Source: Thermoplasmatota archaeon (GTDB lineage Archaea > Thermoplasmatota > Thermoplasmata > Thermoplasmatales > GCA-001856825). Taken from it: a stretch of DNA of 64,000 bases. Location: assembly GCA_023381415.1 (NCBI GenBank), contig JAMCUN010000007.1, positions 1-64,000 of the forward strand, in the 5' to 3' direction. Position numbers and translations under genes: made by a program. A model generated the notes under the pieces. That model had not been told where the DNA came from and searched no databases. It saw only the letters and a list, made by a program, of their open reading frames with translations. This document shows positions 18,103 to 33,063 of the stretch, one piece after another (within the stretch, counting starts at the first letter, position 1; the number at the start of each line of letters is the position of its first letter).

Positions 18103-19506
18103 TTACTTCGAAGTCTCTTCCGTTCGCTTCGGGATGTTCTTGTCCAGGCCGGACAAGCTGAGCGCCTTTGTCTCAAATCCCTTTCTCTGCCATAGTATCG
18201 TCATTGCAAGAGAGATGACGAAGACGACCATCACTATAGCGGCAGAACCGTTGAAGGGGAAGCCGTTGTCCGCAAGAAATGTCAGTAAACCAGTTATTAC
18301 TCCCGCGCTTACCCAGACCACGAATCTGACGACGGATACGTAGGTACCTCTTTTGAGGGTGGGGAAGAGTTCAGGTTCAAGCATCCCCCTTGATGCCCAT
18401 GTGATCTCTCCAGGTATGAACAGGATGGTCATTATTGCCACAAGCAAGAATCCCGTCACCGCTCCAGTTACAGCCTCGTATATCCACAGTATAGCCCAGA
18501 ATCCTACAAGTATCCCGTAGGAGAATATAGTGAACGTCTTCCTGCTGACCCTGTCCACAAACAGCAGTCCAGCAACAACTCCCACAACTGCCATCGTTAG
18601 TCCTCCGATCAGGGGGATGGTCGCCGCCAAAATGCCATTAGTGCCGTAGAAATAGTCGTATCCCACCCCGTAGGAGAAGTAAACGAACGCAACGTCCTGA
18701 GCCACTCCTATGAGTATAAGGATGAGGAATCTCATTGGCAACCCTACTGATACCTTGACTTTTTCAGTATTACCGTCCTGTCCTACCCATGCATCTTCAA
18801 CATCGGAAGTGGTACCCCCCTTTATGGCGGTCCAAGGGGCAGACTCAGACATAAGTCTCCAGGCTATCGCTAGGGCGACCAAAGGGGCAAAGAACAAGAG
18901 TCCCAGTGCTATGTCGGTCGCAGTCATTGAAAAGCCTAGAAGAAGAGGTATGAACGTGATACCTACGCCGATATTTCCGAAATTCTGTACTATCACGAGC
19001 GAACGTCCTCTTTTTTTGGCTGGAACGGCTTCTGCCATCATAGAGAGTATTGGCGTTTCTAGCCCTATTGCCGCCATTCCTATCAGGATGAATGAAATGA
19101 TCAGTGTTACAAGGTAGACAAGTGAGGAATGGGAGGTCATCTGCCCTGCCAGATATATTGCTATGCCGACCACGATCATTGCAGATGTTATCATGAAGGA
19201 GCCCTTTCTTCCAATCCTGTCTGCGAGTCCGCCTGACAGCAAAGCTCCGACTCCTCCTGCGATGTATGGAAGACTCAACCCCAGGAAGGCATACTTAGAC
19301 GGAATTACCCCTCCAATAGCAAACACGGGACCGTAGCTTTCTGCCACGCCGTACACAAGCATTCCCATTGCCAGAGCTACAAAAACCGCCCAGGGGTATT
19401 TCATCCCGCTCTTTTCACCAGAACTCTCAGATAAATTTTGGTTGGATGATGACGTCAATGGTTCTATAGCGGGATTAGAATTATTTACGCTATTTGGTTG
19501 AACCAT
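18103..19506 (-). CDS. MFS transporter (sugar-porter-like)
   Basis: 467 aa; 'GGLADRIGRKGSFMITSAM', 'MMAEAVPAKKRGRSLVIVQNFGNIG', 'RGMLEPELFPTLKRGTYVSVVRF'. Confidence 0.9.
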   Translation of the reverse strand: MVQPNSVNNSNPAIEPLTSSSNQNLSESSGEKSGMKYPWAVFVALAMGMLVYGVAESYGPVFAIGGVIPSKYAFLGLSLPYIAGGVGALLSGGLADRIGRKGSFMITSAMIVVGIAIYLAGQMTSHSSLVYLVTLIISFILIGMAAIGLETPILSMMAEAVPAKKRGRSLVIVQNFGNIGVGITFIPLLLGFSMTATDIALGLLFFAPLVALAIAWRLMSESAPWTAIKGGTTSDVEDAWVGQDGNTEKVKVSVGLPMRFLILILIGVAQDVAFVYFSYGVGYDYFYGTNGILAATIPLIGGLTMAVVGVVAGLLFVDRVSRKTFTIFSYGILVGFWAILWIYEAVTGAVTGFLLVAIMTILFIPGEITWASRGMLEPELFPTLKRGTYVSVVRFVVWVSAGVITGLLTFLADNGFPFNGSAAIVMVVFVISLAMTILWQRKGFETKALSLSGLDKNIPKRTEETSK

Positions 19507-19710: not shown

Positions 19711-21972
19711 ATGAAGGAAGCGGTGAAAATCTCTGATCTTTCCTTTAGGTTTCCCACGATAACAGGCAAGGAGAAGGAGTATACGCTTAAGAAAGTGAAC
19801 CTGAAAGTCATGAGGGGGGAGGTATTTGGGATCACCGGAGGGACGGGTTCAGGGAAGAGCACGCTCTGTTATGTCATTGCAGGACTGATTCCGCATCAGC
19901 TTAAGATACCACAGGACCAGCTGGAGGACCATATAAAAGGGAGTGTCCAGATACTGGGGGAAAGAGTTGTTGGATATTCAGGATCAGGTAAGGAAAGAAG
20001 GATGGAAATCAGGAGCATAAGGGAGGGGACCGTCGGGTTTGTTAAGCAGGAGCCTGACAGTTATTTCTCGAAGAGGCCCGTGATCGAAGAACTCTCCTAC
20101 AATCTCGACAAACTGAATCTTACCCGAAGGCAGAAGGAGGAGAGGATAAAGGAGGCGTTGAGGGTGGTGAAGATGGAAGGAATTTTCAAGCTCGCATCCA
20201 GTCTCACCCCTTCAGAGCTGTCGAATGGGGAGCAGCAGAGGCTCGTAATAGCTAGTTACCTTGCGATGAAACCGGACATCCTAATACTGGATGAACCTAC
20301 GTCTGACCTTGACCCAGTTGGGAAGGGGGAGGTGGTTGACGCCATTCTTGCAATGAAAAAGGACAGCGGTATCACTATCATTTTGGTGGAACAAGACCCG
20401 GAGACACTGATAAAATTAGCAGACAGAGTGGCAGTGATCAATAAAGGGGAGGTAGTCGTCGTTGACGAGCCGTCCAAGGTATATTCCAGAGGGGATATCA
20501 AGAGATTCATAGACGTACCCGAACTGATGGAGCTTATAGGACCAACCGGGGAGATAGGGGAGAGGTTCGCACCAGAGCGAGTGAAAGGGTTCAAGGTCAG
20601 AAGGAGTGAAAAGGAGAAGGGGAAGGTTCAGCTTCAGATAGATGAGGTGGAATACACATACGAGGATGGTACAAAGGCACTGAACAAGATAAGCATGAAA
20701 ATACATGAGGGGGAGTTCCTTTCTCTGGTCGGGCCGAATGGTTCAGGCAAGAGCACATTCTCAAAGATAGTATCCGGAAACCTTTCCGGATGGAAGGGGA
20801 GCGTTAAGTTTGAAGGTCAGGACATATCGAGGAGAGGGAAGCGGGACAGAGGGAGCGATCACATTGGATACGTATTTCAAAACCCGGATCAGCAGGTCCT
20901 GCAGGGAACAGTCAGGGACGAGATATTCTCAAGACTGAGCATGACTAATTTCGAGAGAGGAAGCTTTCAGGAGATAGCAGAGGAGGCCTTGAGACGGGTG
21001 AACCTGAGGGATAGGATGAACGATGACATCAATGCGCTGAGCAGGGGAGAAAAGAGGAGGCTTGCACTTGCCAGCGTTATTGCCACAAAACCTAAGATGC
21101 TCATTGTGGACGAACCTGCGACCGGACAGGATTACAAGGGTTCGACGGAGATAATGGACCTTTTGGTCGAGCTCAACAACGGAGGGGTGACTGTAATGAT
21201 AATAACGCATGACATGAGGCTCGTAGCTGAGTATACAAGGAGAGCGATTGTCATGAAGGAGGGAAGCATAATATTCGACGGTACACCCGAGGAGCTCTTC
21301 CAGAATGACAGGCTGATGGAGGAATCGTCTCTTGCCCCCCCGCAGCTAGTGAGGATCTCGAGGAAGCTCAAGGACACAGGCGTACTTCAGGACATACTTC
21401 TCAATGCAAGAGAGTGGCTGGAGCTGTTCCGTTTCGAGAGCGAGAAAAAGAACTTCGTGGCACTTAAATTTGTGGACCTGAAGAGGTACGCGAGGGAACT
21501 TGCCGCTGACATCCTGAAACGCTTCGGAAGGCCAGAGAGCATAGTCTACATAGAGAGGGGCGGGATGGTCATCGGAAGACTGCTCAGCGATTTTCTATCG
21601 GTGAGGAAGGTATACCCTCTGAGGGCCAGTTATTACAACGACGACGGAATTCCAATGACGCACGTCAGGATAACGGACTTTGAATTCACTCTCTCAAAAA
21701 GCGACGGCTTCATCCTGCTGGTTGACGACATTGCGGATACCGGGAAGACTCTCAAGGCTGCAAGCGAAGAGCTTAAGAAAAGAGGCTCCGCAAAGATCGT
21801 CACTGCAACTGTTGTTTACAAGCCACAGTCCATATTCAAGCCCGATGCTTACGTCTACGAAGTAAGCAACAACACATGGATCGTTTTCGATTACGAAGAG
21901 ATAGAGACCCTCTCAAGGTTCATGAGGAAGAACAACAAGGAAGGTCTCAAGTTCATGCAGGAGAATTTCTAG
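19711..21972 (+). CDS. Tandem ABC ATPase (ECF/CbiO-like) fused to a C-terminal phosphoribosyltransferase domain
   Basis: 753 aa, one frame. NBD1: GGTGSGKST, LSNGEQQRL, ILILDEPTSDLDP. NBD2: GPNGSGKST, YVFQNPDQQ, LSRGEKRRL, MLIVDEPATGQD. C-terminus: PRTase 'FILLVDDIADTGKTLKAASEELKKRG' (PRPP loop) and 'YIERGGMVIGRLLSDFL'. Confidence 0.95.
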   Translation: MKEAVKISDLSFRFPTITGKEKEYTLKKVNLKVMRGEVFGITGGTGSGKSTLCYVIAGLIPHQLKIPQDQLEDHIKGSVQILGERVVGYSGSGKERRMEIRSIREGTVGFVKQEPDSYFSKRPVIEELSYNLDKLNLTRRQKEERIKEALRVVKMEGIFKLASSLTPSELSNGEQQRLVIASYLAMKPDILILDEPTSDLDPVGKGEVVDAILAMKKDSGITIILVEQDPETLIKLADRVAVINKGEVVVVDEPSKVYSRGDIKRFIDVPELMELIGPTGEIGERFAPERVKGFKVRRSEKEKGKVQLQIDEVEYTYEDGTKALNKISMKIHEGEFLSLVGPNGSGKSTFSKIVSGNLSGWKGSVKFEGQDISRRGKRDRGSDHIGYVFQNPDQQVLQGTVRDEIFSRLSMTNFERGSFQEIAEEALRRVNLRDRMNDDINALSRGEKRRLALASVIATKPKMLIVDEPATGQDYKGSTEIMDLLVELNNGGVTVMIITHDMRLVAEYTRRAIVMKEGSIIFDGTPEELFQNDRLMEESSLAPPQLVRISRKLKDTGVLQDILLNAREWLELFRFESEKKNFVALKFVDLKRYARELAADILKRFGRPESIVYIERGGMVIGRLLSDFLSVRKVYPLRASYYNDDGIPMTHVRITDFEFTLSKSDGFILLVDDIADTGKTLKAASEELKKRGSAKIVTATVVYKPQSIFKPDAYVYEVSNNTWIVFDYEEIETLSRFMRKNNKEGLKFMQENF

Positions 21973-22045: not shown

Positions 22046-22936
22046 ATGCCAGAGTTAAAAGGAATAATCACGCCAACGGTGACACCGTGGAAGGGGGACA
22101 CAATTGACTATGATGCAGTTGATGCCCTGATGGATTTCCTCTCGAAGATAGGTGTGTCTGGGGTCTTTCCAATGGGATCGACGGGTGCCACTCCAATCAT
22201 ATCGGTTGAGCAGCACGTGAAGGTGCTTGAATATTTCATGGACAAGAAGAAACCGAACATGTTCTTCATGGGAGGAATAGGGAGGAATGCAGTTGAAGAT
22301 ACCCTCACGATGGGACTTTACGCAAAAGAACTCGGGGTTGATGCAGTCTCTATAGTGACACCATACTATCTCAGGATGTCGCAGGAGTCGATATACAGAT
22401 ACTACGAGAGGCTGCTATCCCAGATTGACATTCCAGTTCTGATATACAACATTCCCCAGAACACAAACAACAGCATTGAACCACAGACAGTCCTAAGACT
22501 GAAGAGACAGTTCAGCCAGGTGGCGGGCATCAAGGACAGCAGCGGGAACTTTTCAAATTTCATGACGATGATAGACGTGGTCGGCAGGGAGATAAAGGTG
22601 CTTCAGGGACAGGATGACCTTCTCCTTCCCTCACTCGCGATGGGAGCGGCCGGGGGAATAAACGGCACATCCAACTTCTCTGATCTGTCCGTGAGAGTGT
22701 TCAACGAATTCCAGAGCGGCAATTTCGCTTCAGCAAGGAAGATCCAGGCAGTTCTCTCGGAACTGAAGAAGCTGACCAATTCCCTGGAGTTCCCTCAGGG
22801 CCCGCTTGCTGGATTCATAGAGATGGTCTACCATAGGGAGACGGAGAGTCCGTACCCGCTGAAGGATATAGACCCGGAATCAAGGAAGAACTTCGGCGCA
22901 AAGGCAATGGAGATTTTGAAAAAGATAGAGACGTAA
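22046..22936 (+). CDS. DapA-family aldolase (dihydrodipicolinate synthase / KDG aldolase-like)
   Basis: 'GIITPTVTPWKGDTIDYDAVDALMDFL', 'GSTGATP', 'PYYLRMSQESIYRYYERL', 'IYNIPQNTNNSI', 'GIKDSSGN'. Confidence 0.92.
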   Translation: MPELKGIITPTVTPWKGDTIDYDAVDALMDFLSKIGVSGVFPMGSTGATPIISVEQHVKVLEYFMDKKKPNMFFMGGIGRNAVEDTLTMGLYAKELGVDAVSIVTPYYLRMSQESIYRYYERLLSQIDIPVLIYNIPQNTNNSIEPQTVLRLKRQFSQVAGIKDSSGNFSNFMTMIDVVGREIKVLQGQDDLLLPSLAMGAAGGINGTSNFSDLSVRVFNEFQSGNFASARKIQAVLSELKKLTNSLEFPQGPLAGFIEMVYHRETESPYPLKDIDPESRKNFGAKAMEILKKIET

Positions 22937-22967: not shown

Positions 22968-23225
22968 ATGGAATCATACGGCGAGGCAGACAGGGTGGAG
23001 GATCTGAGGACACTCAACTGCGGAGAGCCGTACATATACATAAAGGGCGCAATCAGGCTCGCTTCCAGGGAGCTGAAACCTGGCCAGATCCTGATGCTGA
23101 TTGTCCCAAAGGAAAAGTGGGTACTTCAGGATGAGACATTCAACACAATCTTGGAAACTAGCAAGTTCGAGGTAGTAGAGAGCAGATACGATCTCAATGT
23201 GGTCCATAAGCTGAGGAAGCAGTAG
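22968..23225 (+). CDS. TusA/SirA-like small protein
   Basis: 85 aa; 'EDLRTLNCGEPYIYIKGAIRLASRELKPGQILMLIV' aligns by eye with TusA 'DxRGLxCPxPxxxxKxALxxLKPGxxLxVxx', with a non-canonical CGEP core. Confidence 0.55.
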   Translation: MESYGEADRVEDLRTLNCGEPYIYIKGAIRLASRELKPGQILMLIVPKEKWVLQDETFNTILETSKFEVVESRYDLNVVHKLRKQ

Positions 23226-23227
23226 AG

Positions 23228-23542
23228 ATGAGATGCTATCTTTTCATGGTGAGTTTCACTGCGACTGACAGATCGACAATATGCGTGCTAGAGGACAAGA
23301 TAAAGCAGGCTCTCGAGGAGTTCATTGATGTGGACCCATCAGACAGGTGGACAGTAGAAGAGCTTATTTCCAGGTTTGCAAGAAAGGAAGCTGTTACGAA
23401 GGATGACGTGACTGTGGGATACGTGTTGCTATCGTCCCAGGAAAGGTCTGTGGAAGTGAGCCTCAAAGAGGAAGGGGCGGGCAACATCATTGGGGGACTG
23501 AAGGAAATTACTGAGAAGCACGGGTTCAAGTTCTTGAACTGA
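23228..23542 (+). CDS. Conserved hypothetical protein
   Basis: 104 aa, adjacent to the preceding gene in an apparent operon. Confidence 0.5.
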   Translation: MRCYLFMVSFTATDRSTICVLEDKIKQALEEFIDVDPSDRWTVEELISRFARKEAVTKDDVTVGYVLLSSQERSVEVSLKEEGAGNIIGGLKEITEKHGFKFLN

Positions 23543-31998: not shown

Positions 31999-33063
31999 GT
32001 GAGTGAAATGGACAGGGCTGTTATACTCGCGGAGAAGGTGTTTTCCTCCACCTACGGCAAGACGGCTCACGGGCTTGTGAGATATTCCACGCGTTTCAAG
32101 ATCGTCGCGGTTATAGATTCACAGCTTGTAGGGCTCGATGCAGGGGAGTATCTGGAGGGAAGGAACAAGGGGATACCCATTGTGGCTACTCTGGATGATT
32201 CACTCAAGTTCAATCCAAAGTATCTCATCGTTGGTGCGGCTACAGACGGAGGAGTCCTACCTGCAGAATACAGGGAAGTGATAAGGAGGGCGATCGGAAT
32301 GGGGATAGGGATAATCAATGGGCTCCATGATTTTGTTTCTGACGATCCTGAGCTCAACGGACTGGCCCGCGAAAAGAACGTAGAAATCATAGATGTCAGG
32401 AAGATGTTCAGGGACAGGAAAATTCCTTTCACGGGAGAGATTGAGAAAGTAAAATCCTTCAAGATCGCAGTCCTGGGAACTGACAGCGCAATCGGAAAGA
32501 GAACGACAACGATCATGCTCATGAACGAACTGAAGAGAAGGGGTTTCAGCGCCGAGATGGTCGGGACGGGGCAGACATCGTGGATGCAGGGCATAGAGCA
32601 CACTGCAGTCATAGACGCAACTATCAACGATTTTGTCGCAGGAGCAATAGAGAATGAAGTTGTTGGTGTGTGGAAGAAGTATGCCCCTGATTTCATACTT
32701 CTTGAGGGGCAGGGTTCGGTAGTTCATCCAGCATATCCTGGAAGTTTCGAGATTATAGCTGCAGGAAGACCGGATGCAATAATACTTCAGGATGCTCCTG
32801 GAAGAAAGTTCCTCGACGGATTCGAGCGCTATCCTATGCCAGAACCCGGGAAGGTCATTAAGATACTTGAACTGTTATCTGGAAAGAAGGTAATAGCCAT
32901 AACAATTAACACCCAGAATCTCACGGCGCAGGAGGCTCTGCAAGCATCACAGGAGTATGAAATGAAGTACCACATTCCCGCTATCATTCCAATGATAGAC
33001 ATTGAAAGACTAGGAGAACTGGTGGCTGAATTTGCAAGCCAGAAGCAAGTTGTTATCGATTGA
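31999..33063 (+). CDS. DUF1611 family protein (P-loop NTPase-like)
   Basis: 354 aa; 'FKIAVLGTDSAIGKRTTTIMLMNELKRRGFSAEMVGTGQTSWMQG', 'ILLEGQGSVVHPAYPGSFEIIAAGRPDAIILQDAPGRK'. Confidence 0.88.
   Translation: MSEMDRAVILAEKVFSSTYGKTAHGLVRYSTRFKIVAVIDSQLVGLDAGEYLEGRNKGIPIVATLDDSLKFNPKYLIVGAATDGGVLPAEYREVIRRAIGMGIGIINGLHDFVSDDPELNGLAREKNVEIIDVRKMFRDRKIPFTGEIEKVKSFKIAVLGTDSAIGKRTTTIMLMNELKRRGFSAEMVGTGQTSWMQGIEHTAVIDATINDFVAGAIENEVVGVWKKYAPDFILLEGQGSVVHPAYPGSFEIIAAGRPDAIILQDAPGRKFLDGFERYPMPEPGKVIKILELLSGKKVIAITINTQNLTAQEALQASQEYEMKYHIPAIIPMIDIERLGELVAEFASQKQVVID

What the first reader, a model, noticed from the sequence alone, without database searches (positions are those of the whole stretch)
19711..21972. 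Single-polypeptide fusion of a tandem ECF/CbiO-like ABC ATPase with a phosphoribosyltransferase
One uninterrupted 753-codon frame has two full nucleotide-binding domains (Walker A, signature and Walker B in both) followed by a PRTase domain with a PRPP-binding loop (VDDIADTGKT), from about 21450 to 21972. The PRTase resembles the purine/xanthine class. No membrane T or S component lies next to it: neighbours are an MFS transporter on the other strand and a DapA-like aldolase. The fusion suggests uptake of a nucleobase coupled to trapping as the nucleotide, or ATPase control by nucleotide/PRPP. I cannot exclude that the architecture is already known in related archaea.
Basis: partly seen in the sequence, partly recalled or inferred. 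Interest (0 to 1): 0.85.

Follow-up and report, generated by a model that had tools for sequence, protein, structure and literature searches.

The report
ECF transporter ATPase fused to phosphoribosyltransferase
This archaeal gene encodes the motor of a vitamin-type membrane importer joined to an enzyme that turns a purine base into a nucleotide; relatives in two archaeal phyla keep it beside the matching membrane parts, while the lineage read here has lost those parts and appears to use the fused protein free in the cell.

Summary
In detail: one 753-codon frame holds two ECF-type ABC ATPase domains and a type I phosphoribosyltransferase (PRT), and it is uninterrupted in about 30 genomes, so it is no assembly error.
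In Thermoplasmatales family f3 and genus g17, and in Micrarchaeota, it is the third gene of an S-T-(A-A-PRT) operon. T is a CbiQ-family protein with both coupling motifs. S is a six-helix protein of no known family with the AxxxA docking motif of S components.
In the window's own family (f1, the I-plasma group) neither partner is detectable in 15 genomes. There NBD1 has lost its switch histidine or its signature, and the NBDs evolve faster than the PRT; in S/T-bearing lineages the reverse holds, without overlap.
The PRT keeps the lysine and tryptophan that read 6-oxopurines and is structurally closest to Sulfolobus HGXPRT.
Best reading: an ECF importer that hands a purine base to its own PRT for trapping, and in the window's lineage a derived soluble form without membrane parts. 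Substrate, activity and channelling are inferred. I found no description of this architecture in the literature held.

The parts
19711..21972 (+). ATPase-PRT fusion gene, 753 codons plus stop
   Evidence: about 30 orthologues
19711..20496 (+). NBD1 (residues 1-262), ECF-type ABC ATPase half
   Evidence: Pfam ABC_tran and TIGR04521/TIGR04520
19837..19863 (+). NBD1 Walker A GGTGSGKST (43-51)
   Evidence: lysine invariant in 20 of 20
20218..20238 (+). NBD1 signature LSNGEQQ (170-176)
   Evidence: LSGGQKQ in S/T-bearing relatives, lost in genus g3
20275..20295 (+). NBD1 Walker B DILILDE (189-195)
20392..20394 (+). NBD1 H-loop position, Gln228 (His in all S/T-bearing relatives)
20629..21435 (+). 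NBD2 with its ECF-type C-terminal stretch (307-575)
   Evidence: TIGR04521 match 309-559
20731..20757 (+). NBD2 Walker A GPNGSGKST (341-349)
21037..21057 (+). NBD2 signature LSRGEKR (443-449)
21094..21114 (+). NBD2 Walker B KMLIVDE (462-468)
   Evidence: D467 and E468 invariant
21208..21210 (+). NBD2 H-loop His500, invariant
21436..21969 (+). Phosphoribosyltransferase domain (576-753)
   Evidence: PF00156 at 593-726; predicted fold matches Sulfolobus HGXPRT
21547..21570 (+). PRT loop I YIERGGMV (613-620)
   Evidence: invariant in the 20 fusions aligned
21721..21750 (+). PRPP-binding loop VDDIADTGKT (671-680)
21820..21822 (+). Lys704, aligned with the lysine of E. coli XGPRT that contacts the 6-oxo group
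   Evidence: alignment; invariant; role of that lysine from general knowledge
21877..21879 (+). Trp723, aligned with the base-stacking Trp of E. coli XGPRT
   Evidence: alignment; invariant; role of that Trp from general knowledge
18103..19506 (-). MFS transporter, divergent neighbour in genera g1 and g2; candidate replacement importer
22046..22936 (+). DHDPS-family aldolase, conserved downstream neighbour in family f1

Best explanation
The protein is the ATPase subunit of a variant ECF-type ABC importer in which a 6-oxopurine phosphoribosyltransferase is fused behind the tandem ATPase. In the intact system (family f3, genus g17 and Micrarchaeota) S binds the base, T couples S to the tandem ATPase, ATP drives release of the base into the cytosol, and the fused PRT converts it with PRPP to the nucleotide beside the exit, trapping it. 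The window's lineage descends from such a system but has lost S and T. There the protein most likely works in the cytosol as a purine PRT whose tandem ABC module still binds ATP and has one canonical ATP site, now serving as a scaffold or a nucleotide-dependent control of the PRT. Shown by sequence: the domains, the operon, the motifs, the absence of S/T and the shift of constraint. Inferred: substrate, transport, catalysis, trapping, and the present role of the ATPase.
For: The S-T-fusion gene order occurs in four f3 genomes, G041 and ten Micrarchaeota genomes, with gene overlaps or gaps of at most 84 bp, mostly under 20, except 436 bp between S and T in G041. The T gene matches CbiQ above cut-off and carries AQxAR[GS] and E[AS]RGF in 15 of 15. 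S is a five- or six-helix protein by hydropathy with A[IV]Q[IM]A in helix 1 in all 15, the AxxxA docking motif described for S components (PMC11109136, PMC4820897). S occurs in 4 of 394 genomes of the phylum, all with the fusion. S and this T are absent from all f1 genomes. The PRT tree places f1 inside f3, which polarises the change as a loss. NBD/PRT distance ratio: 1.27-3.32 between f1 genera, 0.35-0.87 between S/T-bearing lineages. Closely related f1 pairs show dN well below dS in the NBDs, so these are still selected. PRT residues K704 and W723 are invariant; the predicted fold is closest to S. solfataricus HGXPRT.
Against: No activity or substrate is known. The S family has no characterised member, so the link to purines rests on the PRT alone. 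The S sequence is far better conserved across phyla than the PRT (66-81% against about 37-59%), which could mean that the PRT is accessory. Seven Micrarchaeota and both g17 fusions have E for the second D of the PRPP loop. Thermoplasmatales carriers encode PurC, so they do not obviously need imported purines. Several f1 genomes are incomplete (52-93%), and a very divergent T or S could escape the profiles.
Confidence: 0.6

Rival explanations
1. In the window's lineage the fusion still powers import, with an unrecognised permease: the neighbouring MFS protein or a T/S pair too divergent to detect.
For: The MFS gene is present in all 14 f1 genomes that hold the fusion, and next to it in genera g1, g2 and g4; in g4 it is directly upstream in the same direction. 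All catalytic residues of NBD2 are kept and the NBDs are under purifying selection.
Against: MFS carriers are not known to use ABC ATPases (general knowledge). The MFS gene also occurs in four f6 genomes without the fusion and lies elsewhere in g3. The Q-loop region that faces T in ECF ATPases has changed in f1 (QNPDHQIFNR to QNPDQQVLQG and others).
Confidence: 0.2
2. In f1 the NBD module is only a structural remnant that dimerises the PRT; ATP has no role.
For: NBD1 lost its signature and the Walker B glutamate in genus g3, and the H-loop histidine in g1, g2 and g4. NBD divergence outpaces PRT divergence.
Against: Walker A lysines of both halves and Walker B, signature and H-loop of NBD2 are conserved in all f1 sequences. 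dN/dS in the NBDs is about 0.03-0.2 in close pairs.
Confidence: 0.2
3. The PRT is not a purine salvage enzyme but a sensor: PRPP or a nucleotide bound to it regulates the transporter ATPase.
For: Nine S/T-bearing fusions (two of g17 and seven of Micrarchaeota) have a changed PRPP loop (DE for DD) and a second, degenerate PRT-like half. The PRT is the fastest-evolving part of S/T-bearing fusions.
Against: The D676, K704 and W723 positions are intact in all fusions aligned, and loop I in nearly all. Three Micrarchaeota add a second complete PRT gene in the same operon.
Confidence: 0.2

Closest known systems
ECF transporters (CbiMNQO and EcfS-EcfT-EcfA-EcfA')
   Same: Tandem ECF ATPase above the NCBIfam cut-offs; in relatives a CbiQ-type T with two Ala/Ser-Arg coupling motifs and a six-helix S with AxxxA in helix 1.
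   Different: PRT fused to the ATPase; S belongs to no Pfam, NCBIfam or PDB sequence family; in the window's own lineage S and T are missing.
S. solfataricus hypoxanthine-guanine-xanthine PRT (GpT-2; 4z1o, 4zfn, 5bqo, 5bqp) and P. horikoshii purine PRT (1vdm)
   Same: Best sequence matches (E about 1e-13) and best fold matches of the PRT domain; similar loop I, PRPP loop, base-contacting Lys and Trp.
   Different: Those are free-standing enzymes of 150-180 residues.
HGPRT/adenylate kinase fusion of Zobellia galactanivorans (PMC7326950)
   Same: A purine PRT fused to a P-loop nucleotide-binding partner.
   Different: The partner is a soluble kinase, not a transporter ATPase, and there are no membrane subunits.

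Membership tests
ECF-type ABC importer | Two ECF-type ATPase domains | tested here: met
   TIGR04521 373 bits (cut-off 330), TIGR04520 361.5 (315)
ECF-type ABC importer | Complete ATPase motifs in both halves | tested here: not met
   In the window protein NBD1 has Gln for the H-loop His; S/T-bearing relatives are complete
ECF-type ABC importer | T component in the genome (window's family) | tested here: not met
   No orthologous T in 15 f1 genomes; CbiQ only in G000 and G004, in G000 within another ECF operon
ECF-type ABC importer | T component with coupling motifs (f3, g17, Micrarchaeota relatives) | tested here: met
   CbiQ above cut-off in f3 and g17, both motifs in 15 of 15
ECF-type ABC importer | S component: six helices, AxxxA in helix 1 (relatives) | tested here: met
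   helices by hydropathy count only
ECF-type ABC importer | S component belongs to a known S family or has the S fold | tested here: inconclusive
ECF-type ABC importer | ATP-driven uptake of a substrate | not testable with these tools
   needs transport assays
Type I 6-oxopurine phosphoribosyltransferase | PF00156 domain with loop I and PRPP loop | tested here: met
   74.2 bits, cut-off 26.3; loops
Type I 6-oxopurine phosphoribosyltransferase | Lys and aromatic residue that contact the 6-oxopurine | tested here: met
   K704 and W723 align with the AKP and TWI motifs of E. coli XGPRT
Type I 6-oxopurine phosphoribosyltransferase | Fold | tested here: met
   Foldseek E 2e-14 to HGXPRT 5bqo; model pLDDT 72 overall, about 90 in the core
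Type I 6-oxopurine phosphoribosyltransferase | Enzyme activity and base preference | not testable with these tools
   needs assays

The most novel reading that the evidence does not exclude
The S-T-(A-A-PRT) system is a primary importer that delivers its substrate straight to a fused enzyme, a physical form of the old idea of purine uptake by phosphoribosylation; and in the I-plasma family the ATPase-enzyme subunit has left the membrane and become a soluble, ATP-responsive PRT.
Probability: 0.35. Interest if true: 0.85.

Novelty: new variant of a known kind. Interest (0 to 1): 0.68.

Why it matters
ECF importers are known for vitamins and metals. An ECF motor fused to a purine-salvage enzyme, with a new S family, would add nucleobases to their range and give a clean test of whether import and trapping can be coupled in one complex. 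The operon occurs in Thermoplasmatales and in Micrarchaeota, groups that live together as hosts and symbionts in acidic habitats (PMC5498576, PMC12892359), and the ATPase tree puts one Thermoplasmatales genus inside the Micrarchaeota, so the system has probably crossed between them. The window's family offers a natural before-and-after comparison of an ABC ATPase that lost its membrane partners while its enzyme stayed under strong selection.

Tried and rejected
Assembly artefact or frame break: rejected, about 30 uninterrupted orthologues. Fusion limited to the window's species: rejected. Fusion limited to Thermoplasmatota: held after 9 of 394 genomes, then dropped when 11 of 296 genomes of a second phylum had it. 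Sharing of the T of another ECF operon: possible in G000 and G004 only, as the other f1 genomes have no CbiQ match at all. Purine auxotrophy as the reason for the system: not supported in Thermoplasmatales, which have PurC; Micrarchaeota carriers lack it (0 of 11) but so do most other Micrarchaeota (2 of 12 have it). MFS as a strict partner: weakened, as it occurs without the fusion. A specialised linker between NBD2 and PRT: not needed, since residues 537-559 and beyond match the normal ECF ATPase C-terminus. I first read the g3 H-loop as lost; the motif table shows His there, and the losses in g3 are the signature and the Walker B glutamate. The full-length structure model has too low a pTM (0.41) to judge domain arrangement. 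A weak S-profile hit in G014 (E 1.6e-4) contains four stop codons and is not a gene.

Full report
OBSERVATION. Window 19711-21972 (+) is one open frame of 753 codons. Pfam finds ABC_tran twice and Pribosyltran once, all far above cut-off, and NCBIfam places the ATPase halves in the energy-coupling factor families. All ABC motifs are present except that the H-loop of NBD1 carries glutamine. The window lies in G000, an incomplete genome (81%) of the genus that includes I-plasma.

SPREAD. The same fusion, in one frame, is in 9 of the 10 other genomes of the genus, in the four other genomes of the family (f1), in four genomes of family f3 and in one of genus g17 (family f6) among 61 relatives. In a sample of 394 genomes of the phylum it is in nine, all of this order. 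In a second phylum it is in 11 of 296 genomes at 43-46% identity, one of them a contig-end fragment. That phylum was reached from locus L069, whose public record is titled Marsarchaeota; its small genomes (0.5-1.2 Mb) and the gene block it shares with records titled Micrarchaeota (L071, L072) make it Micrarchaeota, which is my inference.

THE MISSING MEMBRANE PARTS. In f3 and g17 a CbiQ-family T gene lies directly upstream of the fusion and, upstream of it, a gene for a small, strongly hydrophobic protein. The ten Micrarchaeota loci have the same order (the S of G430 was found in another frame). In all 15 operons T carries AQxAR[GS] and E[AS]RGF and S carries A[IV]Q[IM]A in its first helix. 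The AxxxA motif of helix 1 docks S components to the ECF module, and arginines at the ends of the coupling helices meet aspartates of the ATPases (PMC11109136, PMC4820897). S matches no Pfam or NCBIfam family above cut-off and no PDB sequence; the other copies are 66-81% identical to the G016 copy across both phyla. Profiles of S and T find no orthologue in the 15 f1 genomes searched, G000 included; there are only weak hits to other T proteins in G000 and G004 and a stop-ridden S hit in G014. Three of these genomes are 92-93% complete, one of them in six contigs. In G000 the CbiQ gene belongs to another ECF operon with its own tandem ATPase (L081).

WHAT CHANGED IN THE WINDOW'S FAMILY. All S/T-bearing fusions keep the H-loop histidine, signature and Walker B in both halves. 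In f1, genera g1 and g2 have Gln and g4 has Lys at the NBD1 H-loop; g3 has lost the NBD1 signature and has Asp for the Walker B Glu. The Q-loop region that faces T has changed in every f1 genus. Corrected distances between lineages give an NBD/PRT ratio of 1.27-3.32 for the six f1 pairs and 0.35-0.87 for the fifteen S/T-bearing pairs, with no overlap; the pairs are not independent, so I quote no probability. In close f1 pairs dN is far below dS in the large domains (for example G006-G005: NBD1 0.017/0.256, NBD2 0.007/0.283, PRT 0.008/0.279), so the ATPase is still selected. In the PRT tree f1 nests inside f3 (support 96/89 and 95/92), which makes loss of S and T in f1 the simplest order of events, subject to the rooting. 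In the NBD tree g17 nests inside the Micrarchaeota clade (96/93), a sign of transfer between the phyla.

THE ENZYME. The PRT domain is closest in sequence to S. solfataricus GpT-2 and P. horikoshii purine PRT (E about 1e-13) and aligns with E. coli XGPRT through the PRPP loop, the AKP lysine and the TWI tryptophan. Its predicted fold best matches S. solfataricus HGXPRT, including GMP- and xanthosine-bound entries. A 6-oxopurine substrate is therefore likely; which base is unknown. Every genome searched also has other PRT genes. In seven Micrarchaeota and in g17 the fusion carries a further 110-130 residues that match the N-terminal half of a PRT (hhalign probability 97%, 51 columns) without loop I or PRPP motif; three other Micrarchaeota have a separate complete PRT gene next in the operon. 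Type I PRTs work as dimers (general knowledge), so a fused or adjacent second copy would fit.

NEIGHBOURS. In f1 the fusion is followed by a DapA-family aldolase and two small genes in all four genera, and an MFS gene is adjacent in g1, g2 and g4. The MFS gene is in all f1 carriers but also in four f6 genomes without the fusion. In one Micrarchaeota locus thymidine kinase, thymidylate synthase and DHFR genes are close by, a nucleotide-metabolism setting but not purine-specific.

MECHANISM. For S/T-bearing lineages: S takes up the base, T passes the ATPase stroke to S, the base is released next to the fused PRT, and PRPP turns it into a nucleotide that cannot leave. Every step after the gene order and motifs is inferred from what ECF transporters and PRTs do. 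For the window's lineage: with S and T gone, the enzyme is the part under strongest selection, and one ATP site (Walker A/B and H-loop of NBD2 with the signature of NBD1) is canonical in g1, g2 and g4, so ATP binding probably still matters to it.

NOVELTY. Literature searches for ECF with phosphoribosyltransferase, purine or nucleobase, and for ABC-PRT fusions, returned nothing that describes this; the library lacks most subscription journals, and the founding ECF survey (PMC2612444) was not held. I file the S/T-bearing system as a new variant of ECF transporters, with the S fold untested, and the window protein as a derived member of that lineage that does not meet the definition of a complete ECF transporter.

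Noticed in passing
L081:4358-7648 (G000 contig C15): The window's genome has a second ECF operon: a four-helix S-like protein of no Pfam family, a 532-aa tandem ECF ATPase and a CbiQ T. Similar T proteins occur in G004 and several f6 genomes.
   Followed up: partly
L079, L083 against L113-L119: Genus g17 of Thermoplasmatales carries a fusion whose ATPase part nests within Micrarchaeota, suggesting transfer between symbiont and host phyla.
   Followed up: partly
L069:5188-6936, L071:3823-5562, L072:5200-6918: Micrarchaeota proteins of 570-580 aa join a possible nucleotidyltransferase (weak NTP_transf_5 match) to the same PRT type, next to an amino acid permease and another conserved gene.
   Followed up: no
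window 31999-33063: DUF1611 protein, 58% identical to the DUF1611 gene that lies about 2.7 kb upstream of the S-T-fusion operon in G041 (L079:558-1619).
   Followed up: partly
window 22968-23542: Two small genes (85 aa of no family; 104 aa, TA0956 family) follow the aldolase in the same order throughout family f1.
   Followed up: no
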